NCBI GenBank assembly: GCA_030638575.1
Contig: DAOWEJ010000105.1
Coordinates: forward strand, 1 to 55,072
DNA from: Deltaproteobacteria bacterium
GTDB taxonomy: Bacteria > Desulfobacterota > Desulfobacteria > Desulfobacterales > JAUWMJ01
Direction of reading: 5' to 3'
Length of the DNA stretch: 55,072 nucleotides
Part shown: positions 8,174 to 27,635 of the stretch, piece by piece
Layout of the letters: the number at the start of each line of letters is the position of its first letter
How positions within the stretch are numbered: the stretch's first letter is position 1
Translations under genes and position numbers: made by a program
The notes under the pieces: model-generated
The model's database searches: none
The model's input: only the letters and a program-made list of their open reading frames with translations
Told to the model about the DNA's origin: nothing

Positions 8174-8176
8174 TAT

Positions 8177-9031: not shown

Positions 9032-9047
9032 TTTAGCCTCTCTGTGT

Positions 9048-9611: not shown

Positions 9612-9640
9612 GCGTTGTTATAAGCAATTGATGTGCCAAA
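9612..9640 (-). promoter_or_regulatory. Sigma54 promoter P2 (lipoprotein and sugar-nucleotide genes)
   Basis: Minus-strand TTTTGGCAC-ATCAA-TTGCTT, with GG at 9637-9636 and GC at 9625-9624 (12-bp spacing). The core is identical to P1, and both flanks resemble P1, so the two promoter regions are related copies. Predicted start near 9612; the leader of about 580 nt includes repeat R6. Confidence 0.8.
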
Positions 9641-9794
9641 ACGGATGATTTAGAATTTAAATTGCTGTATTATTATATATTAATATTTCAGACTGTTATG
9701 TGACAGTTTGTGTAATTAATAATATAAATGAAATAGGCCTTTTAAAGATGTGGTTAGAATGGGAAGGTTATTACACAATAACAGGGAAAGATAG

Positions 9795-9806
9795 GTAATT
9801 TATTGC
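9795..9806. promoter_or_regulatory. Candidate enhancer palindrome GTAATTTATTGC (P2)
   Basis: One mismatch from GTAAT-N2-ATTAC, about 160 bp upstream of P2, and aligned by flanking sequence with the distal P1 site at 2332. Confidence 0.4.
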
Positions 9807-10005
9807 ACATTTTATGAAACTTATTACACAAACAAGGCTGGAAAGCTTGGAAACCAGGAAGCTTGGAAGCTGAATAGACCGAAATTTAGTATACTAGTGA
9901 TAAAAAAGAATGATCCTGAATATTATTGCCTGCCCCGTAGGGAGGAACTATCGTACTGGGGTGTGTCTGCCTGCCCCGTGGCTCCGGCAGATGGTCCCGG
10001 GGTGG

Positions 10006-11346: not shown

Positions 11347-11370
11347 GATCTATAGTCTTCCTTTCAAAAA

Positions 11371-11687
11371 TTGAATTGATTCTATTTTATGTTCTTTTAT
11401 TAGACAGGATTATACAGGATAGTTTTTATTTTAATCACTTCCCGGATGGAAGTGATTAAATCTAATCCGCTTTCAGCGGAGGTAAAAATTACATGGTGCG
11501 TAGCTTGCAATTCATCAATATAGCATAATAATACTTTCGCCAAAGGCGAATTGCACTTCATAATTTTCATCCAGCCGTCGCATCTTGGCAGATGCTATGG
11601 CGAGGCAAGCAGGAAAATTATGAATTAATCAATGTAATCCTGTAGATCCTGTCTATTAAGCAGTTAATAAGATCGAATCCATTCCTC
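11371..11687. repeat. Composite spacer repeat (copy R7), fills a 372-bp gap
   Basis: Left arm TTGAATTGATTCTATTTTAT...TTAGACAGGATTATACAGGAT; right arm ATCCTGTAGATCCTGTCTATTAA...ATCGAATCCATTCC. Hairpin at 11430-11460 (stem TTTAATCACTTCC, loop CGGAT). It also has the GCCGTCGCATCTTGGCAGATG module near 11574, held in a stem TTCATAATTTT. Confidence 0.8.
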
Positions 11688-11718
11688 TGTAGTATTTAAT
11701 AAGTTTTTATGGCAATTG

Positions 11719-13293: not shown

Positions 13294-13371
13294 AAATTTT
13301 TTCAGAAGATATTATATTACCGCCCATTCGCTCCGCTCATTCGATGCACAGAGCACGCAAAGAGTTACATC

Positions 13372-13407
13372 TTATTCCTTTTCGCTGAGAGGCGCGAAAA
13401 GGAATAA
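13372..13407. repeat. Hairpin with GAGAGG loop (class 2, copy 1)
   Basis: Perfect 14-bp stem TTATTCCTTTTCGC around loop TGAGAGGC. Two more hairpins with unrelated stems but the same loop lie at 14148 and 14630. Confidence 0.7.
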
Positions 13408-13583
13408 ACCCAAGCCCTTCGGGCAGATAATGTTAAATTCGATCAACTAAAGGTTCATGATAAAATAACTTTACATTTTTATGAGTCGAGTCGCCTGCAT
13501 GGCAAGGCGCGAGGAAGGCGAATTGCGAGCTATTTAACTGATGAGCAACGCAGCCAGGCGGTGCAGGCACAGACTTAATTTCT

Positions 13584-13826
13584 CTAATCTTCAGGTTCTA
13601 CCCATACTATGTGCTCTTTATTAACAATCAGGGTTTTATCCTCCCCTTCCTTTGAGCGTGCATCAATAATAACTATAAACGGGCTGGCACTTTTCGTAAA
13701 TAAGTCTGAAACTCTTTTATTTGGAGTAAGATTTACCATTCCCTGCAGGGTTCTGCCGTCTGAAGTTCTTATTGTAATTGTTTTGTATTCAGGCTTGTTG
13801 CTGCTTGGTTGCTCATTTTTTTTCAT
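13584..13826 (-). CDS. Small protein of unknown function (80 aa)
   Basis: Not recognised. An 80-residue soluble protein: a polar N-terminus (1-13) is followed by alternating beta-like segments (KTITIRTSDGRTLQGMV, PFIVIIDARS, KTLIVNKEHIVWVEPED), suggesting a small beta-barrel. No Cys, signal peptide or membrane segment. It starts 16 nt after the ACP gene stop and is followed by the acyl ligase, so it may act with the ACP-ligase pair; this is context only. A GGAGGG sequence stands upstream of the ATG. Confidence 0.7.
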   Translation of the reverse strand: MKKNEQPSSNKPEYKTITIRTSDGRTLQGMVNLTPNKRVSDLFTKSASPFIVIIDARSKEGEDKTLIVNKEHIVWVEPED

Positions 13827-13842
13827 TCCGACTATACCCTCC

Positions 13843-14091
13843 TTATACTGTTATTTTCCTTTCCAGAAAGGCTGTTACATTGTTGATGGAATCTAAGTTT
13901 TCCGGCACAAGTTCTTCATCTTCAACACTGATTGAAAACTCTTCTTCCAGAAAAGTAACCAGTTCAAGGATTCCTGTTGAATCAATGATTCCATCTTCAA
14001 GAAATGAAGTGTCATCTCCCAAACCGTCTTCGCTTCCAAAAAGGAAGTTTTCTACAATAAATGTTTTAATTTTTTCTTTTGTTTCGTTCAT
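13843..14091 (-). CDS. Acyl carrier protein
   Basis: An 82-residue acidic protein of the ACP fold. The phosphopantetheine site is Ser38 in IIDSTGILEL, where most ACPs have DSL-x-x-x-EL; helix II (ELVTFLEEEF) follows. It is distinct from a housekeeping ACP by its place in the polysaccharide locus. It likely carries an acyl or aminoacyl group loaded by the ligase at 11719-13293. SD AAAGGA precedes the ATG. Confidence 0.88.
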   Translation of the reverse strand: MNETKEKIKTFIVENFLFGSEDGLGDDTSFLEDGIIDSTGILELVTFLEEEFSISVEDEELVPENLDSINNVTAFLERKITV

Positions 14092-14147
14092 TTCTATCCT
14101 TTCTTATTTATTCCACCGCAAAGGCGCTCAATTCGCTGAGATAATTA

Positions 14148-14187
14148 GTTTTTTGTTTTCCGTTGAGAGGACGGAAAACAAAAAAAC
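14148..14187. repeat. Hairpin with GAGAGG loop (class 2, copy 2)
   Basis: 15-bp stem GTTTTTTGTTTTCCG (one extra A in the right arm) around loop TTGAGAGGA, between the ACP and GxxExxY genes. Confidence 0.7.
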
Positions 14188-14199
14188 AGTCTTTTACGG

Positions 14200-14583
14200 C
14201 TATTCTTCCAATTGATTAACGAGTCTAACAATACCATCTTTCATAACCGAAACATTAAAATTGAGTAGCAACCCTAATTTTTGGCCTGATAATTTCAGGT
14301 AGGATAATAGCTGAGCCTTGTGGATTGGCTCTATCTTTTCAATGGATTTCAATTCGGTAATTATTTTATTATCAATAACAATATCGAGACGGTATCCACA
14401 ATCCAGTCTTTTTCTTTTATAGATAATCTGTAAAGCTTTCTGTCTTTCGAATTTTATCCTTCGAAGCTCTAACTCATAACAAATACATTCTTCGTATGCA
14501 GATTCTAACAGACCTGGGCCAAGAGTCCTATGGACTTCAATAGCCGCTCCGATTATCTTACTGCTTAGTTGATTAATGTCCAT
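14200..14583 (-). CDS. GxxExxY protein (PD-(D/E)XK-like fold)
   Basis: A protein of 127 residues from the ATG at 14583; an upstream in-frame TTG at 14607 is less likely. Signature GPGLLESAYEECICYEL gives the GxxExxY name, followed by YRLDIVIDNKIITELKS and a helix with QLLSYLKLSGQKLGLLLNFN. The conserved D-x-V-x-N-K...E-L-K arrangement resembles the PD-(D/E)XK nuclease core, but no activity is established for the family. These genes are common in Desulfobacterota and in polysaccharide loci, often as single insertions. It is flanked by two class-2 hairpins (14148 and 14630), so it may have moved as a cassette. Confidence 0.82.
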   Translation of the reverse strand: MDINQLSSKIIGAAIEVHRTLGPGLLESAYEECICYELELRRIKFERQKALQIIYKRKRLDCGYRLDIVIDNKIITELKSIEKIEPIHKAQLLSYLKLSGQKLGLLLNFNVSVMKDGIVRLVNQLEE

Positions 14584-14629
14584 TTTTGATCTTACCTTAA
14601 ATGGCAAAAAGCATCAGTAACAATGCTGT

Positions 14630-14664
14630 TTTTCTATTGTCGGCCTCTCAACGACAATAGAAAA
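14630..14664. repeat. Hairpin with GAGAGG loop (class 2, copy 3)
   Basis: Perfect 13-bp stem TTTTCTATTGTCG around loop GCCTCTCAA, the reverse complement of the TTGAGAGG loop of the other two. Confidence 0.7.
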
Positions 14665-14709
14665 TTGTTCATCTCTGCGACCTTTGCGACTTTGCGGTGA
14701 ATATACCTT

Positions 14710-15702
14710 TTATTTTTTTATTTCAGGGACGTCATCTACCAGAAGAGGTTGCAGGTGTAAATAGCGCGTAGTTAACCTTTTGGTGTCGATATCATCGTAC
14801 ACCCTTTGTATCTGTTCCGGCTCTAAATCGAGGTATTCAGCAACAGTCTCAACCGAAATGCCATTGTTCTTTCCATATAAGCAGAGATCCATTCTATCAT
14901 AGGGAAGGGAGAAATAGAATTCATCCTGGCCCTGGGAAAGCGAATAGGTATCTGTTGTAGGCGGCCGTTCTCTGATTTCTTCGGGAACACCGAGATATTC
15001 TGCTAATTGGTATACCTGCGTCTTATAAAGATGGGCTATCGGCTTTACATCCGCAGCACCGTCACCCAGTTTTACAAAAAAGCCCTGGTCATATTCCAGG
15101 CGGTTCGGGGTCCCGGCCACAGCAAAGTTAAGTCTGTCAGCATGATAGTATTCAAGCATTTTGCGTATGCGTTGCTTGAAATTAGTCGCCGCAACAATTT
15201 CAAGATATGCCCTCAACGTAAGCCGCTTTTTTACAATAGTATTGTCAGGGCTTTGAGCAACAATTGAAAATAAATTAAAACCTTTTGTTTCAATAACGTT
15301 CGGGGTGACAATCTTAGACTTCCATCCGTCTCCGTATCCAGGGACAACCATTCGTACAGCATCATCATATCTCTTGTAGAAACCCACCGACTCGAGTATT
15401 CCGGAAATATCTTCATGAACTTTATCAACACCAAAATGATCTGCCACCATTTGGCTTAGTTCAAGGGTATCAGCGGCAGAATGACGCTCAGGCATCAACA
15501 ACGCCAAAACCCGATCCCGGCCTAAAGCTTTTGCTGAAAGTGCAGTGGTGACACTGCTGTCAATGCCACCGGAAAGCGCGACGATCAAGCCTCGTCGTTT
15601 AAACTGGTTTGCCGTAAAACTGATAAGTTGTTTGGTGATTTTTTCTACTTCTTCTTCCGGATCGATTATTAAAACATCTTTTGAGAATTTTTGGTTTTTC
15701 AT
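14710..15702 (-). CDS. nadE: NadE-like NAD synthase / ATP pyrophosphatase
   Basis: A 330-residue N-type ATP pyrophosphatase with PP-loop SGGIDSS (44-50), NFAVAGTPNRLE, KLGDGAADVKPIAHLYKTQV and RPPTTD, all as in NH3-dependent NAD synthase. The glutaminase domain is absent, so ammonia or a partner must supply nitrogen. The spacing and the sequence around GQDEFYFSLPY depart from housekeeping NadE. It lies 33 nt after the amidotransferase gene. It may be a true NadE, or a locus-specific amide ligase acting on an acyl or uronate group; sequence alone does not decide. Confidence 0.8.
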   Translation of the reverse strand: MKNQKFSKDVLIIDPEEEVEKITKQLISFTANQFKRRGLIVALSGGIDSSVTTALSAKALGRDRVLALLMPERHSAADTLELSQMVADHFGVDKVHEDISGILESVGFYKRYDDAVRMVVPGYGDGWKSKIVTPNVIETKGFNLFSIVAQSPDNTIVKKRLTLRAYLEIVAATNFKQRIRKMLEYYHADRLNFAVAGTPNRLEYDQGFFVKLGDGAADVKPIAHLYKTQVYQLAEYLGVPEEIRERPPTTDTYSLSQGQDEFYFSLPYDRMDLCLYGKNNGISVETVAEYLDLEPEQIQRVYDDIDTKRLTTRYLHLQPLLVDDVPEIKK

Positions 15703-15735
15703 AAATATCCTTTTTGTTTTTTATTAGCCGGCTTC

Positions 15736-17748
15736 CTATCTTCCCAGCTTCCCGGCCTCCTGGCCTTTTCCAAATATTTTGACATCATCCGGCTCTTGAA
15801 TCGGATGAGTAGGGAAATTTTGTATAAACTGGTGATCTAAAAGCTGAGTGGAAAGAATTCCGACCATGGCCATATTCTCCCGTTCACTTAAAATTTGCCC
15901 TTCCTTCTTCCTGCATTTCATAACAAGCCTTGAAACCTTTTTATTATCAAAATAGCCGCTTCTCTTGATTGCACTTTCTGACAGCAAATCTTCCACATAA
16001 TCGACAGGTTGATTACCAAAAAAACATTTACTTATGGGTGCACGATACGGTTGTTTGGGTCTGTCAATTACTTCAGCAGGAATAAGGCCGCGAGCTGCCT
16101 GCTTTAAAATGAATTTTTCCTTAAGCCCGTTCATTCGATAGCATGGCGGAACCCGGGTGGCAAACTCAACCACGCGATGGTCCAGAAATGGATAGCGTCC
16201 TTCGACGGCATTTGCCATGGCCATCCGATCTCCTTGGGAAGACAAAAGATAATTTGAAAGAAAAAGATTGATTTCAGTAAATTGGGCTCTTGACAGCGGA
16301 TGCCATGACATGAAATCCGCCGGCAGCGTAGAAACAAATCTATCGAAAAATTCTTCCTGGGTTCCGGTTTCCTTCTGCAAATCATCCGAAAAGAAACCTC
16401 TCAGGTGGGCAGTATTTTGCCATCTGAGCAAGTGAGAATAAACAGGTGAGTTAGTTTCGGAAAGACTTTTTCTGAAAAATCCCTCCAGAAATGCTTTTGC
16501 CTTACCGTTTTGCTGGGCAAAAACATAGGGGTAAAGTCTTTCAAGGAGCATGGGCCGCATCCTGGAATCAGGGTTCCGTGCCCAGAACCTTCGCACCCTG
16601 TCTTCTTTGAAGATATTATAGCCGGCAAATATCTCATCAGCCCCTTCACCTGTCAGCACTACCTTGAAGTTGTTTTCTCGGACCAGCTTTGAAAGATGAT
16701 AAAGGGGAGCGGGAGCTGTCCTTAGTACTGGCACTTCCGTGTGCCAGATGACTTGAGGGAAAGCCTCTCCGATATCTTTTTCAGCACACCTAATATCTCG
16801 ATGTTCAGTTTCAAGGGCATTAACTGCTATTTCTTGAAAAGGAGTTTCGTCGAAACGGCTATCTGTGAAACTGACTGAAAAAGTACGAAGTAAATTGTTG
16901 AAATTGCGTTTTACGAGTGCACTGGTATAGGTGCTGTCAAGTCCGCCGCTTAGATACGCTCCAACAGGAACATCCGCACGGAGCCGAATTCTTGCAGCAT
17001 CACGAAGCAAATGGTTTAATTCTTCTGTCCATTCTAATAAAGGTCGTTCACTTGGGTATTCATCACTTTGACTGTTAAAAGATAATTTCCAGTAGCGATG
17101 TGTTCTGAAACCCTTCTTAGAGAACCTGGCATAATGCCCCGGCGGAACCTGATATATATCCCCGAACGGCGTAGAAGAACCAACAGGTGTCCAGCATGTA
17201 AATATATCTGAAAGTGTCTGTGAATCGAGTTTGCGTGGAATCGTTGGGTCAGCAAACAGAGCTTTTACTTCAGAACCGAATACCAGCCGCCCGTTATTTT
17301 GGTAGTAGAAAAGAGGCCTGATACCCACCCTATCACGCCCAAGCAGCAAGGCTTCCTTTTTTTGGTCCCACAGGGCAAATGCAAACTGTCCGTTCAGGTC
17401 ATTAAACATTTCCGAACCGTGTTCCTCATATAAATGCACCAGGACTTCCGTGTCGGTTTGAGTGTAAAACCGGTGGCCCCGTGCAACTAAATCTTCCCGG
17501 AGTTCCGGGTAGTTGAATATTTCACCGTTGAACACTATCCACACAGATCGATCTTCATTGTGAATCGGTTGATCTCCGCCACTTAAGTCAATGATACTCA
17601 ACCTTGCATGCGCCAATCCCGCATTAGGGCTTATGAAAATACCTGAGGCATCCGGCCCCCTGTGACGAATAAGTCCGATCATCCGGCAAAGGGTGCCTTG
17701 CATGTCTTCAGCGTGATTATAATTAATTATTCCTGCTATTCCGCACAT
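15736..17748 (-). CDS. asnB: Asparagine-synthase-like amidotransferase (exosortase-locus type)
   Basis: A 670-residue class II glutamine amidotransferase fused to an asparagine-synthase domain. Cys2 (MCGIAG) is the glutaminase nucleophile; RHRGPD (29-34), FNGEIFN (73-79) and SGGLDS PP-loop (267-272) are intact, as is LTGEGADEIFAGY. Family members ATP-activate a carboxylate and amidate it. A member of this family is a regular component of exosortase-A EPS loci, where it is thought to amidate a sugar acid or modify the polymer rather than make asparagine. With two UDP-uronate dehydrogenases nearby, uronamide formation is a reasonable inference. The last residues (EAGKLGR) come from an AAGCTGGGAAG dispersed repeat. 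Confidence 0.85.
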   Translation of the reverse strand: MCGIAGIINYNHAEDMQGTLCRMIGLIRHRGPDASGIFISPNAGLAHARLSIIDLSGGDQPIHNEDRSVWIVFNGEIFNYPELREDLVARGHRFYTQTDTEVLVHLYEEHGSEMFNDLNGQFAFALWDQKKEALLLGRDRVGIRPLFYYQNNGRLVFGSEVKALFADPTIPRKLDSQTLSDIFTCWTPVGSSTPFGDIYQVPPGHYARFSKKGFRTHRYWKLSFNSQSDEYPSERPLLEWTEELNHLLRDAARIRLRADVPVGAYLSGGLDSTYTSALVKRNFNNLLRTFSVSFTDSRFDETPFQEIAVNALETEHRDIRCAEKDIGEAFPQVIWHTEVPVLRTAPAPLYHLSKLVRENNFKVVLTGEGADEIFAGYNIFKEDRVRRFWARNPDSRMRPMLLERLYPYVFAQQNGKAKAFLEGFFRKSLSETNSPVYSHLLRWQNTAHLRGFFSDDLQKETGTQEEFFDRFVSTLPADFMSWHPLSRAQFTEINLFLSNYLLSSQGDRMAMANAVEGRYPFLDHRVVEFATRVPPCYRMNGLKEKFILKQAARGLIPAEVIDRPKQPYRAPISKCFFGNQPVDYVEDLLSESAIKRSGYFDNKKVSRLVMKCRKKEGQILSERENMAMVGILSTQLLDHQFIQNFPTHPIQEPDDVKIFGKGQEAGKLGR

Positions 17749-17753
17749 GGATT

Positions 17754-17885
17754 ATATAGCTCATAGCTGATAGCTCAGAGTTGACAGCTCAAAGCTGATA
17801 GTTCAGAGCTCATAGGGGTTAGGTACTGACAGCTCAGAGATCAAAGCTGATAGGAGTTAGGTGATAATCATGGGTCATAACAACT
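17754..17885. repeat. Low-complexity AGCTCATAGCTGATAGCTC repeat
   Basis: Degenerate short-period repeat of AGCT-containing heptamers. The same repeat is found in the opposite sense at 18267-18354, on the other side of the four-helix-bundle gene, and at about 28495, 32420, 38565, and inside the kinase gene at 49149-49273. Confidence 0.75.
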
Positions 17886-17891
17886 AAGCCT

Positions 17892-18266
17892 TTAAGCTTT
17901 AATTGAATTGATGAGGCCGGAAAGCATTCTATTTATTTCTTCGGCTTCTGAATACAATTCATTATACTTTTCTCGTTTCAGCCATTTCTTCTTTAGAAAT
18001 ATTTGTAGCATTGTTACAGTCTCGTAAAGAGACCCCCTGGAAATGTACAAAAAGTGTTTAAACTCCTTTTTCGAATATCTCCCTTTCCCTTCCGATATAT
18101 TCAAAGCCACTGAAGTACTAGAAGCTTCTAACTGTTCGATGAGCCTATAATGTTTCCGTGACGTATCGAGTTCGTCAACGAGATTAATCACTGAAACTGC
18201 AAAATCCAATGCCCTTTGATAAACTTGTAATTCCTCAAAAGCAAATCCCATTATCAATTCCTTCAT
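17892..18266 (-). CDS. Four-helix-bundle (S23/IVP family) protein
   Basis: A 124-residue helical protein with the family start FEELQVYQRALDFAVSV, then SSTSVALNISEGKGRYSKKEF (about 50-70) and long C-terminal helices. The family was first seen in intervening sequences of 23S rRNA genes, but is now known in many genomic sites; the function is unknown. An internal Met (MGFAFEEL) may be the true start. It is flanked on both sides by low-complexity AGCT repeats in opposite sense and breaks the EPS gene order, which suggests insertion. It has no evident link to polysaccharide synthesis. Confidence 0.85.
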   Translation of the reverse strand: MKELIMGFAFEELQVYQRALDFAVSVINLVDELDTSRKHYRLIEQLEASSTSVALNISEGKGRYSKKEFKHFLYISRGSLYETVTMLQIFLKKKWLKREKYNELYSEAEEINRMLSGLINSIKA

Positions 18267-18354
18267 TTATGAGCTGTGAGCTACCATCTGTCAGCTATTC
18301 CCTTACCTATCAGCTATTCCCTATGAGCTGTGAGCTATTACCTGTGAGCTATCC
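18267..18354. repeat. Low-complexity ATGAGCTGTGAGCTA repeat
   Basis: Same repeat family as 17754-17885 in the reverse sense, filling the spacer between the beta-barrel gene stop and the four-helix-bundle gene start. Confidence 0.7.
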
Positions 18355-19710
18355 TCATCTTCCCGTCCTGTATGGCTGACTGCGAGTTAACGTTATGCTC
18401 AAAAGGCCTCGATTTTCAACGTAATCAATTGGATCAGTTGAGTCAAAGTTGCGATAGGAATATTCAACCCTTATGCTAAAGTTGATGTTTGAAGACAGCC
18501 ATCTTTCATATTCATATGTAAGCCCGACGCCGCCTCTTGTGGTCTTGTCTCTACGCACAGGGTCCTCGTCCTCATATTTGTCCTGCCGGTATGAACCGAA
18601 AATATCTCCGGTAACGCGCCTTGTAAGATTGTATTCCGCTTCCAGGCCGGCCTCATAAAATATTGACAACCCCAGGCTCTCGGCACCAAAATATGCTCCA
18701 TCGTACCCACCTGATCCTGCTAAGCTTACCGAGCCTCTTTGAAATGTTTTTTCAAAAACGACATCTGCTGTCGGGCCAGATTTGTCATCACGTCCTTCAA
18801 TTTGCTCGTCATAATCCTGGACAAAATAACCGACATCAACGTCAATTCTTTTATCCTGAGCAACCTCGTAATTAAAACCGATATATGGATTATAAATTTG
18901 ATAATCTTCTTCGGTTTTTTCAAAATCAACGTAAATATGGGTATAAGCTAAATGCCCTTCAAGTTGCCGGGAAAACCGTTTTATCAATCGTATATTGCCG
19001 TCCCATGCATTAAAATCATCTGATGGTATACCAATAAATCCATCTTCCCTGTCGTACTCAGCCTTTATATATGATACTATTATTTCACTACCCCATCGTG
19101 GAGTAAACCAATAAGTAAGACCTGCTGACGGAATATGCCGTGAATTGTCTTCAAGGGTTTCATCTTCGTTTTCAAGGATGCCGTACGCATATTCAAGATA
19201 GAAAGAATCGTTTTCACCAAACTGATTGGTAAACCTTAAACTGGCAATGTTTCTAATGTATGGCTCTCTTGATGTTCTTAAAGTAGGATCTGCTCCTATG
19301 GCAGGATCATCGGAACGCAAATAATAAATATCTTCCTCTCCAAACGGATCTTCAGTTCGCACGAAAGCATTACGTATTTCCAGCCTGCTGTTTCGCGTCA
19401 GGTCTGACCAGCCGTAAAGCAGAGCAGTATGGCGCCATGTGTCGTTCTCAGAGAACTCGTTGTAAATGGCATATGCAGGATCGTACGATATTTCTATTCC
19501 GCTGTGTTGCCACAAGAGTTCAGTAGTAAATCCTAGAGAGATAACGGTAATAAACTCATCTTCTTCAGCATCTTCCAACAGGAAATAATTATCTGTATAT
19601 TCACCGCTAACAGACATCCTTGGTAAAAACGTGGCCTGGAAACCGGCAGCGTTAGATGCAATAAATAAAATAGTGGATATTGCCACGCAAAGATAAATTT
19701 TAAATTTCAT
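18355..19710 (-). CDS. Outer-membrane beta-barrel protein of the PEP-CTERM/EPS system
   Basis: A 451-residue protein with signal peptide (1-22, cut after SNAAG) and a mature region of alternating amphipathic strands with many acidic turns (DNYFLLEDAEEDEF, YRDEDP-like loops) ending in an aromatic-rich strand (RGLLSITLTRSQ). This pattern matches the large outer-membrane barrels regularly encoded in exosortase-A EPS loci. It probably forms the outer-membrane conduit or scaffold for polymer secretion, next to the Wza-like lipoprotein/export gene upstream. No enzymatic motif is seen. The start ATG follows a TTGTTGTCCGTTGT repeat, with no strong SD. Confidence 0.8.
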   Translation of the reverse strand: MKFKIYLCVAISTILFIASNAAGFQATFLPRMSVSGEYTDNYFLLEDAEEDEFITVISLGFTTELLWQHSGIEISYDPAYAIYNEFSENDTWRHTALLYGWSDLTRNSRLEIRNAFVRTEDPFGEEDIYYLRSDDPAIGADPTLRTSREPYIRNIASLRFTNQFGENDSFYLEYAYGILENEDETLEDNSRHIPSAGLTYWFTPRWGSEIIVSYIKAEYDREDGFIGIPSDDFNAWDGNIRLIKRFSRQLEGHLAYTHIYVDFEKTEEDYQIYNPYIGFNYEVAQDKRIDVDVGYFVQDYDEQIEGRDDKSGPTADVVFEKTFQRGSVSLAGSGGYDGAYFGAESLGLSIFYEAGLEAEYNLTRRVTGDIFGSYRQDKYEDEDPVRRDKTTRGGVGLTYEYERWLSSNINFSIRVEYSYRNFDSTDPIDYVENRGLLSITLTRSQPYRTGR

Positions 19711-20113
19711 AATTGCTCCACATTGTTGTCCGTTGTATGTTGTAAGTTGTCCATTGAGAAAAGCAAGCCTAATAGCTTTTTAATTATTTAGCCACCCCAG
19801 TACCATCTACCGGAGCTACAGGGAAGGCAGACACACACAGACTCACACGGACATCTGTCCGAGCGGGTCGCTCGGATAAATACAGTCATCCGCCAAAGGC
19901 GGATAAAACTGATCATTTTATCGTTGCCAAAGCTGATAATCAGCAAATTCGCAGCTATTGCAAGCAGGCTAAAATATAATGTTTTTTACTGCCCAAAGGG
20001 CATACAACCTTTTCCCGGTCGGACTCGGCCATGAAAAAAATTTGTCTGTGTATGTCTGTGTGGAGCTTGCCGAGTCGAAGCGTGCGAAGCCTGGTCGGTG
20101 GCTAATATTCAAA
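19711..20113. repeat. 403-bp repeat-filled spacer
   Basis: Holds a TTGTCCGTTGT repeat (about 19726-19760), a GGGAAGGCAGACACACAC block related to 9960 and 9430, hairpins TCCGAGCGGGTCGCTCGGA and CATCCGCCAAAGGCGGAT, and a block at 19980-20025 (TTTTTTACTGCCCAAAGGGCA...) also found at 2410-2440. No gene is seen. Confidence 0.65.
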
Positions 20114-20716
20114 TTAAGGCACAATAATGGTGTCATCAGCCTGAAGCTGAACATTTTGACTGAAATCTTTCCCTTTTAAAATATCTTTATAGTTGATTCT
20201 TATCGTTTTCTCCTTTCCATTTTCTTTCCTGAAAAGGATAATCTCTTTTTTAGATGCCCATTCCGTGAATCCCCCTGCAAGGGCAAATGCCTGGAGAACC
20301 GTAAGGTTTTTTACAAGAGGGTACTCTCCGGTATTGACGACTTCTCCTAAAATATAGATCCTCTTGCTCGCCGGACTTCTGATAGTTACAGTGACAACAG
20401 GATTGGATATATATCCCTTTAATTTATTCTGGATATCTTTTTTAAGCTCCAAAGGCGTTCGGCCACCTGCCTGGACATCGTCAAGAAGAGGAAAAGAAAT
20501 TTTTCCGTCGATCCTTACTAAAATTTCCTCCCTTGAAAAATCAAGCTCTTTCCACGTAGTAATATCTATAATATCACCGCTGCCGATCCTGTAAGGATTT
20601 ACACTGAACTTTGTATCTGCTGCTGAAGGCTTTTGTTCACCTGCATAGACATTGGATGCAGTATATGTGAGAATAAATGCCAAACAAATGCTTATGAAGA
20701 TAAAATGCTTTTTCAT
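20114..20716 (-). CDS. Polysaccharide export protein, Wza-like (exosortase-locus type)
   Basis: A 200-residue protein with signal peptide (1-25, cut after VYA), a poly_export domain (YRIGSGDIIDITTW..., about 42-115: RIDGKISFPLLDDVQAGG) and a SLBB-like region (VVNTGEYPLVKNLTVLQAFALAGG, 130-155). The family forms the periplasmic/outer-membrane channel through which polymer leaves the cell. It is shorter than Wza (about 380) but of normal size for PEP-CTERM-locus export proteins. No lipobox Cys is seen after the signal. It lies between the tyrosine autokinase and the outer-membrane barrel genes. Confidence 0.88.
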   Translation of the reverse strand: MKKHFIFISICLAFILTYTASNVYAGEQKPSAADTKFSVNPYRIGSGDIIDITTWKELDFSREEILVRIDGKISFPLLDDVQAGGRTPLELKKDIQNKLKGYISNPVVTVTIRSPASKRIYILGEVVNTGEYPLVKNLTVLQAFALAGGFTEWASKKEIILFRKENGKEKTIRINYKDILKGKDFSQNVQLQADDTIIVP

Positions 20717-20739
20717 GATGATTTCTCCATTTCAATATT

Positions 20740-20972
20740 TTTAGACAGGATTAACAGGATGGTCAGGATTATATTTATTTTTTCACTTCCCGGATGGAAG
20801 TGAAAAAGCCTAATCCGCTTTCAGCGGAAAGAAGTTTTCTTTTCGCCGAAGGCGAATTGAATTTTCTCAGTTTCCTGCAGCCGTCGCAGCTTGGCAGATG
20901 CTATGGCGAGGCAAGCCGGGAAGTGATGAAAATTTAAAATATCATGTATAATCCTGTTTATCCTGTCTGATT
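20740..20972. repeat. Composite spacer repeat (copy R8), in a 395-bp gap
   Basis: Bounded by TTAGACAGGATTAACAGGAT and ATCCTGTTTATCCTGTCTGATTAA. Hairpin at 20779-20807 (stem TTTTTCACTTCC, loop CGGAT), a TTTCGCCGAAGGCGAA hairpin, and the GCCGTCGCAGCTTGGCAGATG module. No gene is seen between 20717 and 21111. Confidence 0.8.
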
Positions 20973-21111
20973 AAAAATTTTTTATATAGCTCCGCCTGGT
21001 CAATTACAACTGGTTTGTGCAATCAACGCAGACAAGCAAAGCATAACAATCGTACCTTTAAGACGAGATTTAAAAATAAACAAATAAGACTAAAAAGAAC
21101 CTTAACAGCCT

Positions 21112-21960
21112 TTAGTCTTTACCGTAGTATTTACCATATTGGGAATATTTGCCGTATCCGTAATATGCAGATGAACGTACATCGAACCAATTAACAACAA
21201 TTCCGAGCACCTTTTCTTTCCCCATCATTTCAAGCAAATCCCCAACAAGCTCACGCCGTGTACTGCCTGCTTTCACGACCAGAAGAATCCCGTCAACCTG
21301 CCTGGCGATGACACTTGTCTCTGATGTCAGGTGCGGTGGCGGTGAATCTATAATAATATAACGGTCATTATATCTTGACGTTACTTCTTTAAGAAGCTCT
21401 GCCATTTTTTTTGAAGACATAAGTTCAGCCGGATTTTGAGGCGGTCTACCGCCCGGTAAAATGGTCAACTTGTTTATCTCGGTCTTTAAAAGCAGCGAGG
21501 ATAAAGATGTACCTTTTGACAGATGTTCGCTAAGTCCTTTAACATCATGAAATCCGAAATTGCCATGAATAGTGGCTTTGCGCATATCACAGTCCATCAA
21601 AAGAACATGCTGATCAATATTCTGGGCAATGCTTACCGCCAAATTGGATGACACGAAAGACTTTCCCTCGCCAGGAACAGCACTGGTTACCATTATTGAA
21701 CGGGGGGGCTTACCGGAAACAGGAAACAAAATATTTGTTCTTAGATGTTTGAATTGTTCAGACTCAAAAGATTGGGGCTCAAGAAGCGACACAATATTCT
21801 CATCGACGTCCCTGCTTTTAAAAACTGTCTTGATTGCCCCGGAGGACGCCTTTTCTCTTGCATTTCTGTCATATACTTTAAACATAGAGGCTTTATCTGT
21901 TGAGACTGAAGCCTTGTTTTCCTTGTCTGATTTTATCAGTGCATCGTTTATTTTGCCCAA
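21112..21960 (-). CDS. Tyrosine autokinase, CpsD/CapB type (exosortase-locus)
   Basis: A 282-residue bacterial tyrosine kinase. Walker A SAVPGEGKS (93-101), Walker A' VLLMDCDMRK (119-128) and Walker B IIIDSPPP (about 205) are intact. The C-terminal 20 residues hold seven tyrosines, the expected autophosphorylation cluster. In this family the cytoplasmic kinase works with a Wzz-type membrane partner to set chain length and drive export. That partner is encoded 37 nt upstream (21998-23548), as in exosortase-A loci where the two are split. Confidence 0.9.
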   Translation of the reverse strand: MGKINDALIKSDKENKASVSTDKASMFKVYDRNAREKASSGAIKTVFKSRDVDENIVSLLEPQSFESEQFKHLRTNILFPVSGKPPRSIMVTSAVPGEGKSFVSSNLAVSIAQNIDQHVLLMDCDMRKATIHGNFGFHDVKGLSEHLSKGTSLSSLLLKTEINKLTILPGGRPPQNPAELMSSKKMAELLKEVTSRYNDRYIIIDSPPPHLTSETSVIARQVDGILLVVKAGSTRRELVGDLLEMMGKEKVLGIVVNWFDVRSSAYYGYGKYSQYGKYYGKD

Positions 21961-21997
21961 TTTTCTTCCCTCACCAAATTAATATATTTATAGTTGA

Positions 21998-23548
21998 TTA
22001 TGTAATGCCTTTAAGGCCCGCAAGGTCAAAACCGGTCAGTGAAATAAAAGTAAAACTTGCCAGCAATGCAAATGATACTATGACGAAAAAAATACTCAAA
22101 ACCTGATTAAATCTTTGCTTTCTTATATCTTTAGGGTGGAGGACTAAAGGAATAGTGGCAAGAACAGGGAGTTCAAGAAACGACTCAATCTCTTCAGGCC
22201 GCCTGAAAGAAGTGTCAAGATATTCCAGTAAAAAGACAAACCCGCACCCTATCCCCAGGCCTGCAGCTACAAAAAGTAAAAACAATTTGTTCATATCGGG
22301 CTCGCTCGGCCGTTCTGCCATCCTTGCAGGATCAATAATTCGGAATTGCTCACCCTTTTTCTTTATCTCCATATTTACCGATATTTCTGCTTCGAGCTTA
22401 CGGCCCAATAGAGAATTATATGTTTCATTTATATTATCATAATCCCTTCTTAAAGATAAAAGCTCCTGTTCTCTTTTCGGAGTATCTTCAACCCGCTTTT
22501 CAAGATTTTTTATCTGGTTAACTATTTGTAAAATATCCGCCTCCAGAGTCTTTTTTTCACTTTTTATCTCTTCATACTGTCTCCTATCCGAAGCATTCAA
22601 GCCCGACACACCTACAGGCGACTCTACTCCATCTTTATTGGCTGCCTCAAGATCTGCCAGGATCCTTGTAAGCCTGATAATGTCAGGATGCTTATTTGTA
22701 TATCTTGTTTTAAGGTTTGCGAGTTGTTCTTTTATTTGCACGGGATCCGTAGAATCTTCGATTCCCGGTTGAACCGGTTGGGTGGGTGTTTGAGTTCCTG
22801 TTATTCTTGGTATCTGGTTTTCCAACATTGCAAGTCTGTTCCTGGCATCCCGGAGGCTTTCCTGTTTTTCACCCATCTGCACCTGCAATCTGTCAAGTAT
22901 TCTTAAGTTGGTTTCAAGCTGTTCCGGAAGGCTTCCCATGTATCTTTCACGGTAATTCTTAATTCCCTGTTCAACTTCCACAAGCCTTTTTCTCATGGTG
23001 CTGAGTTCATCTTCAAGAAAGACATTCGTTCCTATAGCCCGTTCTTGTCTGTATTTGAGATTTTCAATTATAAAATAATTTGCAAGAGCATTTGTTACAT
23101 CTTTAACAGTTTTAGGATCTTTCCCTTTAAATGAAATCGAAAAGGCATCGGCAGGAGCCCGGCGTCGTCCTCTTATAAGGTTAATGGAAATCCTCTTACA
23201 AATCGCATCAACTTTATCCTCCATAAAAATCTTGTCATGCTCCGGCTTCGGAAATAGATTGAATTCACCTATTATCTTTTCAATGTTTGTACGACTTGTT
23301 ATCTGCTGCGATATGGTGTTTATCATGGAGTCAAGATCAACAGAAATGACCGGGCGGACGAACTCTTCAGGGACTCTTTGGGGTTGAATCAGAATCAAAG
23401 TATCTGAAGTGTAAATCTTAGGGGCAGTCAGAACAAAGCAAATCCCCACGATCATGGAAAGACAAAAAGGGATAATAATGTACCAGCGACGTCTTAAGAT
23501 TATCTCTATAATGTCTCCAGGTTTTATTGTTTCTACGGGGTTGCGCAT
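21998..23548 (-). CDS. Wzz-type polysaccharide chain-length determinant (exosortase-locus)
   Basis: A 516-residue inner-membrane protein. One N-terminal membrane segment (RRWYIIIPFCLSMIVGICFV, about 19-38) and a second near 430-455 (FLLFVAAGLGIGCGFVFLL), followed by the PEEIESFLELPVLATIP signature, enclose a periplasmic coiled-coil domain. A third hydrophobic stretch lies at the C-terminus (IFFVIVSFALLASFTFISL). It regulates polymer length and activates the adjacent tyrosine autokinase. The gene follows the regulator at 23566 by 17 nt, so they should be co-transcribed. Confidence 0.88.
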   Translation of the reverse strand: MRNPVETIKPGDIIEIILRRRWYIIIPFCLSMIVGICFVLTAPKIYTSDTLILIQPQRVPEEFVRPVISVDLDSMINTISQQITSRTNIEKIIGEFNLFPKPEHDKIFMEDKVDAICKRISINLIRGRRRAPADAFSISFKGKDPKTVKDVTNALANYFIIENLKYRQERAIGTNVFLEDELSTMRKRLVEVEQGIKNYRERYMGSLPEQLETNLRILDRLQVQMGEKQESLRDARNRLAMLENQIPRITGTQTPTQPVQPGIEDSTDPVQIKEQLANLKTRYTNKHPDIIRLTRILADLEAANKDGVESPVGVSGLNASDRRQYEEIKSEKKTLEADILQIVNQIKNLEKRVEDTPKREQELLSLRRDYDNINETYNSLLGRKLEAEISVNMEIKKKGEQFRIIDPARMAERPSEPDMNKLFLLFVAAGLGIGCGFVFLLEYLDTSFRRPEEIESFLELPVLATIPLVLHPKDIRKQRFNQVLSIFFVIVSFALLASFTFISLTGFDLAGLKGIT

Positions 23549-23565: not shown

Positions 23566-24522
23566 TTATGTAATATTGTATGCCTTTATTTTATTCAGAA
23601 GGGATTTATAACTTATATTTAGCATCGTTGCAGCCTTTTTTCTGTTCCAGTTTGTCCTTTCAAGAGCCTGTTTCATAAGCTTTTGTTCAGCCTGTGCATT
23701 AATTTCCCTGCAAATATCCTTTAAGGGCAAATTTCCTGAGTCATGTATATAGTTATTAACATCGGCAACCTGTCCAAGATTATGGGTGTATTCATTTATT
23801 TTGCTTTGACTGTTAAGTAGGCTGATTATGCTGTCTTCATTGCCGAGAGCCACTGCACCTTTTACCATATTTTCCAGTTCCGATATATTCCCTGGCCAGT
23901 GATAGTTGAAAAGTGTGTTTTTGATTTTCCGTGACAACCTGTAACGGCTTTTGCCCAGTTCAATACAGTACTTATCTGTAAAAAAATCGGCCAGAAAAGG
24001 TATATCCTCTAGCCTGTGCCTAAGCGGCGGCATCTTCATGCTGATTGCATTTAAGCGATAATAAAGATTTTTCAGGAAAACTCTTTTATGAACAAGTACT
24101 TCAACATCATTGCTGGTCGAGGATATAATTCGAACATCGATATTTCCTTTTAGAATTAAAAGAAGCTCGGCCTGGTAGGCAGCCGGCAGTTGTCCAATTT
24201 CATCTAAAAAGAGGGTCCCTGTGTTTGCGACAGCAAATATTCCCTCTTCATGCTGATTTAAATCCTTAAAAGCAGGGACATTTCTCCCCAGCAGGTCTCT
24301 TTCCGACATTTCATTCATCAGGGCAGAGCAGTTTACCTTGATAAATGGATTATCTCGCCTGTCTGACCGGTATTGTATAATCTTTGCCACAAGTTCTCTG
24401 CCCGTTCCTTTTTCTCCTTTTAGTAAAACCGGCTCCTTCGAACGGCTCAAATCAGGAATCATCTCTTTGATTTTAACAATCTCCGAGCTGTTTCCTATGA
24501 TTGTCGGGCATTCATTTAGCAT
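23566..24522 (-). CDS. Degenerate enhancer-binding protein (AAA+ / Fis), lacks GAFTGA
   Basis: A 318-residue protein aligning along its length with sigma54 activators: AAA+ domain (about 8-235) and a Fis-type helix-turn-helix (about 285-317, NWNRKKAATMLNISYKSLL). Key residues are changed. Walker A reads GEKGTGRE, with Arg42 in place of the lysine, and the sigma54-contact loop GAFTGA reads PAFKDL (83-88). Walker B (TLFLDEIG) and the arginine region (LYYRLN, PPLRHR) remain. There is no receiver domain. It probably binds DNA but is unlikely to open sigma54 promoters itself; an antagonist, co-regulator or feedback role is inferred. It is the first gene of the EPS operon from promoter P3. Confidence 0.85.
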   Translation of the reverse strand: MLNECPTIIGNSSEIVKIKEMIPDLSRSKEPVLLKGEKGTGRELVAKIIQYRSDRRDNPFIKVNCSALMNEMSERDLLGRNVPAFKDLNQHEEGIFAVANTGTLFLDEIGQLPAAYQAELLLILKGNIDVRIISSTSNDVEVLVHKRVFLKNLYYRLNAISMKMPPLRHRLEDIPFLADFFTDKYCIELGKSRYRLSRKIKNTLFNYHWPGNISELENMVKGAVALGNEDSIISLLNSQSKINEYTHNLGQVADVNNYIHDSGNLPLKDICREINAQAEQKLMKQALERTNWNRKKAATMLNISYKSLLNKIKAYNIT

Positions 24523-25396: not shown

Positions 25397-25424
25397 AGGT
25401 TCAGTGAAAATGGAAGGGGTTGAA

Positions 25425-25802
25425 ATGAACAAATCATACAAACTATTGATAATTGATGATAATAAGGAAACCCTGTCAATGCTTCATGCATTTTTTAGCA
25501 AAAAGAATTATGAAGTTGTCTCTTCCCTAAGCGGCCTCGATGGACTTAAATTGTTTGAATCTGAAAAAAAGGGGTTCGATCTGGTTATAACGGACCTTGT
25601 GATGCCCAACATCAGCGGGGTTGCAGTCATTTCTATTATAAAGAAAAAAAATCCCGATACGCCTGTTATAGCAATAACGGGATGGGGTGAACATCCGGAA
25701 GCTTTGGCTTCAGAGGCAAAAGCCGACCTCATATTGTCAAAACCATTGCAGCTTGATGAACTGGAAGTTTCAATTCTCGATTTGCTTTCAATAAAAAAGT
25801 AG
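25425..25802 (+). CDS. Stand-alone response regulator receiver
   Basis: A 125-residue CheY-like receiver domain with no output domain. Acidic pair D11-D12, phosphoacceptor D57 (VITDLVMP), T84-region AITGWG and K in LSKPL are all present. The start ATG at 25425 has SD GGAAGGGG just upstream; a longer frame to 25290 would begin inside the MITE and is rejected. It is followed 10 nt later by a sigma54 activator that lacks a receiver. Together the two resemble a PrsR-type regulator split into two polypeptides. No cognate kinase lies beside it. Confidence 0.88.
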   Translation: MNKSYKLLIIDDNKETLSMLHAFFSKKNYEVVSSLSGLDGLKLFESEKKGFDLVITDLVMPNISGVAVISIIKKKNPDTPVIAITGWGEHPEALASEAKADLILSKPLQLDELEVSILDLLSIKK

Positions 25803-25812
25803 GCCTTGATAT

Positions 25813-26862
25813 ATGGAGAAAGATAAACAAACAGCACCCACCATAATCGGTTTAAGCCCGAATGTAGTAAAAACAAAAGAGCTTATAAATCACGTTGCTG
25901 ATACAGGTTTAAATATAATTATCTGTGGGGAAAGCGGCGTCGGAAAGGAAGTTGTTGCGCAGAACCTTTACCATCGTTCTCCCAGGAAAGGAAAGCCTTT
26001 TGTAAAAATCAACTGTGCAGCATTACCGGAGGGGCTTCTTGAAAGCGAACTGTTTGGCTTTGAACAGGGGGCTTTTACCGGTGCTGAACGCAGAAAACGC
26101 GGAAAATTCGAGCTGGCTCATGGAGGAGTTTTATTATTGGATGAAATCGGCGACATGTCCCTGTCGCTTCAGGCAAAACTTCTTCATGTCCTTCAAAGCG
26201 GCGAGTTCTCTCGATTAGGCTCTGAAAAAGAGTTAAAAACAGACACCTGGATTTTAGCAGCCACCAACCATGAACTCGAGGAGGACATTAAAAATGAAAA
26301 ATTCAGGGAAGACCTGTACTACCGGCTCAATATTATTAAAATCTACCTTTCTCCGCTTCGTGAAAGACCTGAAGATATTCCGGTCCTAATAGACTATTAT
26401 TTAAAAAAATATTCTCCTCGATTTAGGAATAATTCGCTAAATCCCGATTACAGTTTAATTGAAAAGCTGCAAGAATACCACTGGCCCGGAAATGTCAGGG
26501 AACTTCAGAATGTTCTAAAACGGATTCTCGTTCTGGGTAACTGGGAAGAGATTGTTGATGAGCTTACACGCAGTACTTATGCCAAAAACGATTCAACTTC
26601 GGACAAGGCGTCTTCAAAAGAGCCTTCAGTTGTCTCTGATATATTGAATTCTGCCGATGGGCCATTGCAGAATCTTGAATCATTTTCCCTTAAGGACATT
26701 AAGAGAAGAGCACTCAATAGAGTCGAAAAAGAGGCAATCTCTTATGTCCTTGATAGAACAGATTGGAACCGGAGCAAAGCAGCCAAGATTTTAAAAATCA
26801 GCTATAAGACATTATTATACAAAATAAGCGATCTTAAGATAGTGCCCCCAAAAAAATTCTAA
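25813..26862 (+). CDS. Sigma54-dependent transcriptional activator (EBP), Fis family
   Basis: A 349-residue EBP: AAA+ domain (about 12-245) with Walker A GESGVGKE (39-46), the sigma54-contact motif GAFTGA (86-91), Walker B VLLLDE (106-111) and intact arginine region (LYYRLN, SPLRERPEDIP), then a Fis-type helix-turn-helix at the C-terminus (WNRSKAAKILKISYKTLL). It should open sigma54 promoters using ATP. There is no N-terminal sensory domain; the receiver is encoded separately just upstream. The four sigma54 promoters in this window are likely targets. In other PEP-CTERM/EPS bacteria the PrsK-PrsR system with RpoN is reported to control such genes; this is the closest known parallel. Confidence 0.9.
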   Translation: MEKDKQTAPTIIGLSPNVVKTKELINHVADTGLNIIICGESGVGKEVVAQNLYHRSPRKGKPFVKINCAALPEGLLESELFGFEQGAFTGAERRKRGKFELAHGGVLLLDEIGDMSLSLQAKLLHVLQSGEFSRLGSEKELKTDTWILAATNHELEEDIKNEKFREDLYYRLNIIKIYLSPLRERPEDIPVLIDYYLKKYSPRFRNNSLNPDYSLIEKLQEYHWPGNVRELQNVLKRILVLGNWEEIVDELTRSTYAKNDSTSDKASSKEPSVVSDILNSADGPLQNLESFSLKDIKRRALNRVEKEAISYVLDRTDWNRSKAAKILKISYKTLLYKISDLKIVPPKKF

Positions 26863-26990: not shown

Positions 26991-27050
26991 AATAGAAGAA
27001 AAATTATCGGCTAATACCCGTTTGTACAATTGTAAAAAAGGGCAATAAGA

Positions 27051-27086
27051 AACCGCCCTGGGATTTTATCCAGGGCGGTTTTTTGT
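27051..27086 (+). terminator. Intrinsic terminator after the EBP gene
   Basis: Perfect stem AACCGCCCTG / CAGGGCGGTT with loop GGATTTTATC, then TTTTTT on the plus strand. It lies between the convergent EBP and PEP-CTERM genes, and may serve the minus strand more weakly. Confidence 0.9.
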
Positions 27087-27110
27087 TAAGCTGTTTTGTA
27101 ACGTTTTTTA

Positions 27111-27332
27111 TTACTTTTTGAATAGTTTTTTACGTCCAAGACCTGCTAAACCAATAAGACCTATGCCAAGCAACATCATTATAGCTGGTTCGGGAATGGT
27201 TGCAGCAGAATTTTTATCCAAAATGTTAATTGTCTTTGAGAGATTGAACGCAAAAACGTGTCCTGTAACTAAAAAATTTATAAAAAATACAGCTAAAATT
27301 GAAAAAATTAAAACAAATGATATCTTTCTCAT
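27111..27332 (-). CDS. Mini PEP-CTERM sorting-signal protein (73 aa)
   Basis: Signal peptide 1-28 (cut after GHVFA), a mature linker of about 18 residues (FNLSKTINILDKNSAA), then the PEP-CTERM signal: TIPEP (45-49), hydrophobic segment IMMLLGIGLIGLAGL (51-65) and basic end GRKKLFKK. Exosortase A cuts at this signal and passes the protein to the surface, where it travels with exopolysaccharide. The part left after both cleavages would be only about 20 residues, very small for this class. It has its own sigma54 promoter (P4) and SD-like GGA. It may be a peptide that coats or joins the polymer, or a processing decoy. Confidence 0.88.
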   Translation of the reverse strand: MRKISFVLIFSILAVFFINFLVTGHVFAFNLSKTINILDKNSAATIPEPAIMMLLGIGLIGLAGLGRKKLFKK

Positions 27333-27590: not shown

Positions 27591-27601
27591 GTAATAATTA
27601 C
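27591..27601. promoter_or_regulatory. Candidate enhancer palindrome GTAATAATTAC (P4)
   Basis: Perfect GTAAT-A-ATTAC, about 162 bp upstream of P4. The same distance is seen at P2 and, without the MITE, at P1. Confidence 0.45.
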
Positions 27602-27635
27602 ACAGAAACTATGTAATGTTTTTCACAAATTTTTA

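What the first reader, a model, noticed from the sequence alone, without database searches (positions are those of the whole stretch)
27111..27332. 73-aa PEP-CTERM protein with almost no mature part
After signal peptide and PEP-CTERM removal only about 20 residues (FNLSKTINILDKNSAATI...) would remain. It has its own strong sigma54 promoter next to the regulators. It may be a secreted peptide or a matrix-linked tag.
Basis: partly seen in the sequence, partly recalled or inferred. Interest (0 to 1): 0.5.

Follow-up and report, generated by a model that had tools for sequence, protein, structure and literature searches.

The report
Mini PEP-CTERM proteins in sulfate reducers
A real 73-residue gene makes a protein that is almost only a secretion signal plus a sorting tail; some relatives carry similar miniatures next to the same gene switch, and it is the tail rather than the short remaining peptide that evolution keeps.

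Summary
The ORF is real, on the minus strand (27111-27332, 73 aa): a probable signal peptide, an 18-residue linker and a canonical PEP-CTERM tail above the curated Pfam and NCBIfam cut-offs. A perfect sigma54 site starts 98 nt before the ATG; an inverted repeat (TTACATA-N5-TGTGTAA) lies about 170-190 nt upstream of it; a terminator-like hairpin follows the gene. A sister genome keeps the gene in place, with the same length and nearly the same promoter. Between them the linker has diverged (4 of 17 residues kept) while the tail is conserved (23 of 27), so the conserved part is the tail, not the "mature peptide". Probing with the adjacent sigma54 activator found miniatures beside it in 8 of 63 loci examined, including cultured Desulfatitalea alkaliphila; all 8 have a sigma54 site. 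In seven genomes of that family the sigma54-linked mini reads SEP, while 19 of 19 sampled long PEP-CTERM tails of those genomes read PEP. No exosortase was found in this genome (76% complete) or the sister (95%). Best reading: a sigma54-controlled, exopolysaccharide-associated mini xEP-CTERM membrane protein, a new variant of a known kind.

The parts
27111..27332 (-). mini PEP-CTERM gene, 73 aa
   Evidence: translation; PF07589 29.0 bits, TIGR02595 20.5 bits; syntenic ortholog in G001
27249..27332 (-). codons 1-28, signal peptide (cleavage after VFA inferred)
   Evidence: sequence; the -3/-1 rule is recalled; helix 2-24 in the low-confidence model
27195..27248 (-). codons 29-46, the 18-residue linker; fast-evolving
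   Evidence: residues 30-46, 4 of 17 identical to sister, dN 0.59, dS 0.31
27114..27194 (-). codons 47-73, PEP motif, TM segment and basic end; conserved
   Evidence: 23 of 27 identical, dN 0.11, dS 0.69; PF07589
27415..27430 (-). sigma54 -24/-12 site TGGCACATCTCTTGCT; its first base is 98 nt before the ATG
   Evidence: nearly the same sequence upstream of the sister gene
27598..27616 (.). inverted repeat TTACATA-N5-TGTGTAA, candidate activator-binding site
   Evidence: the same half-sites occur upstream of 7 of 8 activator-linked minis (this one included)
27044..27087 (.). hairpin downstream of the mini gene (tool lists it on the + strand; a shorter one on the - strand at 27059-27039)
25410..25802 (+). 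stand-alone response-regulator receiver protein (ORF opens at TTG 25290; internal ATG at 25410)
   Evidence: PF00072 E 1.7e-21; sister 90% identical
25813..26862 (+). sigma54 activator without receiver domain (AAA+ and Fis HTH)
   Evidence: PF00158 and HTH_8; TIGR02915 PrsR model 282.8 bits, below its 502.6 cut-off; sister 82% identical
23566..24522 (-). second sigma54 activator at the head of the exopolysaccharide genes
   Evidence: PF00158, HTH_8; orthologs about 457-470 aa in six other loci
2451..23548 (-). XrtA-type exopolysaccharide locus (chain length, export, amidotransferase, acyl-CoA ligase); no exosortase found in it
   Evidence: TIGR03007 over cut-off; TIGR03027, TIGR03108, TIGR03098, TIGR03016 matched below cut-off; tblastn with a congeneric exosortase gave nothing better than E 8.3 in the window

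Best explanation
The gene encodes a sigma54-switched miniature of the PEP-CTERM kind. The neighbouring response regulator plus sigma54 activator turns it on, probably together with the exopolysaccharide and surface-protein genes. After Sec export and signal-peptide cleavage the product is a short periplasmic stub of about 18 residues on a single C-terminal transmembrane helix with a basic end inside. The part that works, and is kept, is this membrane tail (and the export signal), not the stub. The most likely role is a small inner-membrane partner or adaptor for the exopolysaccharide and surface-protein export machinery. Shown: the gene, promoter site, upstream repeat, hairpin, conservation pattern and recurrence next to the same activator. 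Inferred: activator binding, co-regulation, topology and the partner.
For: Full-length syntenic ortholog in G001: 73 aa, 58% identical, convergent with the same activator (82%) and next to the same regulator (90%), promoter TGGCATATCTCTTGCT, and a hairpin with T-run seen by eye after the stop. Conservation lies in the tail and not the linker (Fisher p 8e-5). Minis lie beside the activator in 8 of 63 oriented loci, all 8 with a sigma54 site of 10 or more of 11 starting 52-98 nt before the start codon; chance is about 0.008 per 200 nt. TTACAYA/TRTGTAA half-sites: 14 upstream of these 8 against 0.85 in shuffles (0 of 300 reach it); two groups whose sequences I had not read when I noticed the motif also exceed shuffles: 5 against 1.10 (2 of 300) and 5 against 0.61 (0 of 300). 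In this window two more perfect sigma54 sites, at 1959-1974 and 9623-9638, precede a secreted beta-helix protein and, at some distance, a GDSL-like protein. The sigma54-linked minis of seven f29 genomes read SEP where 19 of 19 sampled long PEP-CTERM tails of those genomes read PEP. No exosortase in G000 or G001. Of nine genomes whose PEP-CTERM matches all lie in frames of at most 103 aa (or that have none), one has a strong exosortase match, against 49 of 68 genomes with a long one.
Against: In this genome and its sister the motif is canonical PEP, as expected if an exosortase still cuts it. G000 is 76% and G001 95% complete, and a third congener (G002, 73%) has an exosortase with an EpsI-like neighbour, in a non-syntenic locus, so the enzyme may simply be missing from the assemblies. 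The exosortase test is post hoc and not clean: with any match at E<=0.001 it is 3 of 9 against 50 of 68 (p 0.02); with one vote per genus 1 of 5 against 49 of 68 (p 0.03); 19 of the 68 genomes with long PEP-CTERM proteins also lack a strong match, including G151 at 100% completeness; not all the short frames were read. 55 of 63 activator loci show no mini by the filters used. G020's mini has no half-site. The half-site motif was defined from some of the same sequences. Two minis of f29 genomes read PEP: G125's second one and G321's (sigma54 site 9 of 11). AlphaFold is uninformative (mean pLDDT 65.6).
Confidence: 0.4

Rival explanations
1. Sorted micropeptide: signal peptidase and an exosortase trim both ends, leaving an ~18-residue peptide that is secreted or attached to the exopolysaccharide or cell surface; its sequence matters little, as with a spacer or anchor.
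For: Canonical PEP-CTERM tail in this genome and sister; exopolysaccharide locus of the XrtA type; congener G002 has an exosortase. Minis also occur in exosortase-bearing genomes: 15 of 24 mini genomes searched match PF09721 at E<=0.001.
Against: Linker not conserved; motif SEP or SES in 10 of 26 minis, including the seven sigma54-linked minis of f29; no exosortase in G000 or G001 or in four of four g129 genomes that carry minis.
Confidence: 0.3
2. Exosortase brake or decoy: a mini with a weak motif (SEP) occupies the exosortase without useful cargo, so that sorting is tuned by the sigma54 switch.
For: SEP in the sigma54-linked minis of genomes whose sampled long cargo keeps PEP; 5 of those 7 f29 genomes have an exosortase match.
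Against: Does not fit G000, G001, G151 and G311, where no exosortase was found; in this genome no other PEP-CTERM cargo over cut-off was found and the motif is canonical.
Confidence: 0.15
3. Relic: a once longer PEP-CTERM gene shrunk by deletion and no longer functional.
For: Long PEP-CTERM frames (251-280 aa) lie near the same activator in four other loci (L120, L123, L137, L149); Haft 2006 notes that single PEP-CTERM genes may be remnants (PMC1569441, passages).
Against: Same length and nearly the same promoter kept in a sister at 58% protein identity; overall dN 0.26/dS 0.61 and tail dN/dS about 0.15; separate conserved minis in two other genera.
Confidence: 0.1

Closest known systems
PEP-CTERM/EpsH (XrtA) proteins with PrsK-PrsR-sigma54 control (Haft et al. 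2006, PMC1569441; passages and section 7 read)
   Same: N-terminal signal, PEP + TM + basic tail, single-gene unit, sigma54 -24/-12 site (its end is 82 nt before the ATG; the paper's mean from motif 2 to the start is 71), exopolysaccharide locus; the sister's upstream half-sites contain TTTACA, the 3' end of the paper's motif 1
   Different: No domain between signal and tail; upstream half-sites about 170-190 nt from -24 (paper: 32-92 nt) and no TTTACA in the 260 nt upstream here; regulator split into receiver and activator proteins and below the PrsR model cut-off; no exosortase found
Desulfovibrio vulgaris DVUA0057 targets (Rajeev et al. 2011, PMC3333781; passages read)
   Same: A response regulator encoded in an exopolysaccharide-related operon whose five predicted PEP-CTERM targets were all enriched
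   Different: No miniature mentioned in the passages read
RpoN-dependent PepA of Aquincola tertiaricarbonis (PMC9850573; passages read)
   Same: Sigma54-dependent PEP-CTERM gene with a putative terminator, tied to exopolysaccharide retention
   Different: PepA-type proteins are much larger (floc_PepA model 261 positions); its overexpression rescued floc formation of an rpoN1 mutant
Small single-helix bacterial membrane proteins that tune larger membrane complexes (recalled, no call)
   Same: Size, one helix after signal cleavage, conservation of the helix
   Different: Here the helix is a PEP-CTERM sorting tail

Membership tests
PEP-CTERM sorting-domain protein | C-terminal PEP motif, TM stretch and basic end over the curated model cut-off | tested here: met
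   PF07589 29.0 > 20.7; TIGR02595 20.5 > 16
PEP-CTERM sorting-domain protein | N-terminal signal peptide | tested here: inconclusive
   MRK + hydrophobic run + VFA seen in sequence; no predictor run
PEP-CTERM sorting-domain protein | cognate exosortase in the same genome | tested here: inconclusive
   not found with PF09721 or TIGR04178 in G000 (76% complete); in G001 (95%) only one TIGR04178 match far below cut-off (E 0.5); congener G002 has one
PEP-CTERM sorting-domain protein | exopolysaccharide genes in the genome | tested here: met
   TIGR03007 over cut-off in the same locus; other XrtA-system models match below cut-off
PEP-CTERM sorting-domain protein | tail cleaved and product sorted | not testable with these tools
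   needs an experiment
PrsR regulon (Haft 2006) | sigma54 site upstream | tested here: met
   TGGCACATCTCTTGCT, 0 mismatches
PrsR regulon (Haft 2006) | motif 1 ending TTTACA 32-92 nt before the sigma54 motif | tested here: not met
   no TTTACA on either strand in the 260 nt upstream; nearest half-sites TTACATA/TGTGTAA at -186 and -174. The full motif-1 logo was not available to test
PrsR regulon (Haft 2006) | PrsR equivalog (TIGR02915) as activator | tested here: not met
   the two activators of this locus score 282.8 and 196.8 bits against a 502.6 cut-off and have no receiver domain; the rest of the genome was not searched
PrsR regulon (Haft 2006) | PrsK and PrsT in the genome | not tested

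The most novel reading that the evidence does not exclude
Across the Desulfobacterales there is a class of 'mini xEP-CTERM' proteins whose whole mature product is a PEP-CTERM-like membrane tail. They are kept without need of an exosortase, read SEP under sigma54 control in the Desulfatitalea lineage, and have turned a sorting signal into a free-standing small membrane protein that acts on the exopolysaccharide and surface-protein machinery.
Probability: 0.3. Interest if true: 0.7.

Novelty: new variant of a known kind. Interest (0 to 1): 0.5.

Why it matters
[quoted passage not shown] Miniatures that keep only the tail, in some genomes without a detectable exosortase and with an altered motif, are natural minimal substrates or exceptions. 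A 65-residue version in a cultured strain could show directly what the tail is for. Five of the six SEP/SES forms tested fall below the TIGR02595 cut-off, so annotation may miss some (two SEP minis, in G119 and G140, do pass PF07589).

Tried and rejected
The search for related loci with the mini found no relative in genome contigs; plasmids and PHROGs gave nothing. AlphaFold on eight minis: pLDDT 65.6, pTM 0.31, two long helices, not used further. The sub-threshold PEP-CTERM matches in G000:C68 (13.2 bits), G001 and G002 were not counted. G002's exosortase locus is not syntenic with the window or the G001 contig (one distant amidotransferase match only), so it could not show a clean loss. Short frames that proved not to be signal-plus-tail minis were dropped: 6 of the 20 read, and 12 of the 16 read (one of these, L066, has a signal but a longer mature part). 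An exact-dyad scan for an activator site was hardly better than shuffles (top count 3 against shuffled maxima 1-3); the half-site count followed from reading ten of those sequences. Literature searches (listings only, apart from passages of the papers named) showed no paper on miniature PEP-CTERM proteins; subscription journals are mostly not held. The idea that the mini is a mis-started piece of a longer gene was rejected: its stop-to-stop frame is 77 aa and the promoter sits just upstream.

Full report
Observation. The finding's ORF is on the minus strand, 27332 to 27111, 73 codons. The product MRKISFVLIFSILAVFFINFLVTGHVFA/FNLSKTINILDKNSAATI/PEPAIMMLLGIGLIGLAGLGRKKLFKK matches PF07589 with 29.0 bits (cut-off 20.7) and TIGR02595 with 20.5 bits (cut-off 16). 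It is the only match over the PF07589 cut-off in the held genome: 2.31 Mb, 124 contigs, 76% complete. The stop-to-stop frame is 77 codons, so it is not the end of a longer gene.

Gene anatomy. A sigma54 site, TGGCACATCTCTTGCT, starts 98 nt before the ATG. Farther upstream is TTACATA-N5-TGTGTAA at 27616-27598. AAAGGA precedes the ATG and a G+C-rich hairpin follows the stop. Next door are a stand-alone receiver protein and a sigma54 activator lacking a receiver. On the other side of these is an XrtA-type exopolysaccharide locus headed by a second activator.

Conservation. Sister genome G001 (same genus, 95% complete) has a 73-aa ortholog, 58% identical, likewise convergent with the same activator (82%) and near the same receiver (90%), with promoter TGGCATATCTCTTGCT and, by eye, a hairpin with T-run after the stop. 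Between the two, dN/dS is 0.257/0.613 overall, 0.590/0.309 in the linker (4 of 17 residues identical) and 0.105/0.687 in the tail (23 of 27) (linker against tail, Fisher p 8e-5). The counts are small, but they say that the tail is under constraint and the supposed peptide is not.

Recurrence. Of 389 genomes of the order, 151 hold the activator at E<=1e-90. I examined 63 loci: 60 from the stronger listed rows (eight such rows skipped) plus G000, G001 and G020. Eight have a mini next to the activator: G000, G001, G020 (71 aa, motif SES) and five genomes of f29/g97 (64-65 aa, motif SEP). The model was built from these eight, so it recovers them by construction. Four loci instead have long PEP-CTERM genes nearby (five frames, 251-280 aa); in the other 51 nothing was found. 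All eight minis have a sigma54 site of at least 10 of 11 just upstream, where about 0.008 per 200 nt is expected. Contig lengths and coordinates identify G225 as Desulfatitalea alkaliphila M08but, and G151 and G311 as Desulfatitalea MAGs. The order is therefore Desulfobacterales (the window's own placement is inferred from 'same order').

Activator sites. TTACAYA or its complement occurs 14 times in the 260 nt upstream of the eight sigma54 sites, in 7 of 8 (0.85 expected, 0 of 300 shuffles). G020 has none. The pattern was noticed by reading these eight and the two long PEP-CTERM promoters (3 sites against 0.27). Two groups not read at that point, sigma54 sites before the second activator (3 of 5 loci) and before small GGRR/DRR proteins (3 of 7), give 5 sites against 1.10 (2 of 300 shuffles reach it) and 5 against 0.61 (0 of 300). 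In the window as a whole TTACAYA is not enriched (15 against 12.4). It does lie upstream of two further perfect sigma54 sites, which precede a secreted beta-helix/InlB-repeat protein (starting at 1708) and, about 590 nt away, a GDSL-like protein gene (starting at 9031; PF00657 below its cut-off).

A wider class. A model of the eight minis matched 113 of 389 genomes at E<=1e-7; most listed matches lie in long frames. Reading 20 short frames gave 14 more minis, and other calls gave four (G145, G119, a second one in G125, G047). That makes 26 minis in 25 genomes: 15 PEP, 9 SEP, 1 SES, 1 PES (recount). Those of genus g129 (four genomes) and g105 (three) sit in conserved but different neighbourhoods without a sigma54 site found, so minis recur in separate settings. 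Of the 14, four have a sigma54 site of 10 or more.

The motif. The sigma54-linked minis (site 10 or more of 11) of seven f29 genomes (G089, G125, G151, G225, G234, G306, G311) all read SEP; those of G089 and G234 are not beside the activator. Of the long PEP-CTERM tails of those genomes, 19 of 19 fetched read PEP. The 19 were taken from the 39 PF07589 matches that one search counts for these genomes, the stronger ones, which favours PEP. Against a simple rule: G125's second mini and the mini of another f29 genome, G321 (site 9 of 11), read PEP.

Exosortase. PF09721 finds none in G000 or G001 and one in G002. TIGR04178 agrees, with one match far below cut-off in G001. Of 24 mini genomes searched, 15 match PF09721 at E<=0.001. 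In nine of them the PF07589 matches all lie in frames of at most 103 aa, or there are none (not all these frames were read). One of the nine has a strong exosortase match (G169) and two have weak ones (G020, over the cut-off at E 2.4e-8; G119, below it). Among the 68 genomes with a long match in the capped listing, 49 have a strong one (p 0.0007). Counting any match at E<=0.001 it is 3 of 9 against 50 of 68 (p 0.02), and with one vote per genus 1 of 5 against 49 of 68 (p 0.03). This is post hoc, and 19 of 68 exceptions (G151 among them, 100% complete) show that the test is not clean. It weakens, but does not exclude, the sorted-peptide reading.

Mechanism. I favour a small membrane protein whose tail is the working part (0.4), over a sorted micropeptide (0.3), an exosortase brake (0.15) and a relic (0.1). 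The gene, its promoter site, its conservation pattern and its linkage are shown; activator binding, topology, processing and partner are inferred.

Comparison with print. Haft et al. 2006 (passages and section 7 read) describe sigma54 motifs upstream of PEP-CTERM genes with an upstream motif ending TTTACA, and PrsK/PrsR/PrsT. The present promoter resembles that system but fails two of its markers as tested: TTTACA at the stated spacing (absent in the 260 nt upstream here, present farther up in the sister) and the PrsR model. The same paper notes Chlorobium tepidum with two PEP-CTERM domains and no EpsH. Rajeev et al. [quoted passage not shown] A sigma54-controlled PEP-CTERM gene in a sulfate reducer is therefore ordinary; the miniature form and the SEP variant are what is new here, as far as the searches named above reach.

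Noticed in passing
L110, L113, L116, L132, L140, L145, L158, within about 0.5 kb downstream of the activator: Small basic proteins with the pattern NGGRR..DRR..SYT..IPERRS..DRR follow a sigma54-like site (truncated in L145); perhaps another member of the same switch.
   Followed up: partly
window 23566-24522: The second sigma54 activator is 318 aa here, while its counterparts in L110, L112, L114, L116, L121 and L137 are about 457-470 aa with an N-terminal extension; the copy here may have lost it.
   Followed up: no
window 2-1708, minus strand: A large secreted beta-helix plus InlB-repeat protein runs off the contig; the sigma54 site at 1959-1974 upstream has the same 16 letters as the one at 9623-9638.
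   Followed up: partly
window 17892-18266: A 23S rRNA-intervening-sequence protein gene (PF05635) sits inside the exopolysaccharide locus.
   Followed up: no
L195, L196, L198, L206 (genus g129); L192, L194, L205 (genus g105): Two further sets of conserved minis in other neighbourhoods (UbiD-like and exonuclease-like genes; SprT-like and PlsY-like genes, names by eye), no sigma54 site found; the four g129 genomes have no exosortase match.
   Followed up: partly
L065 (G047:C133): A 65-residue mini with the motif PES lies on a contig that also holds a PEP-CTERM fragment.
   Followed up: no
window 24854-24869 and 52159-52174, minus strand: Two more perfect sigma54-like sites, the first about 330 nt before the second activator at the head of the exopolysaccharide genes.
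   Followed up: no
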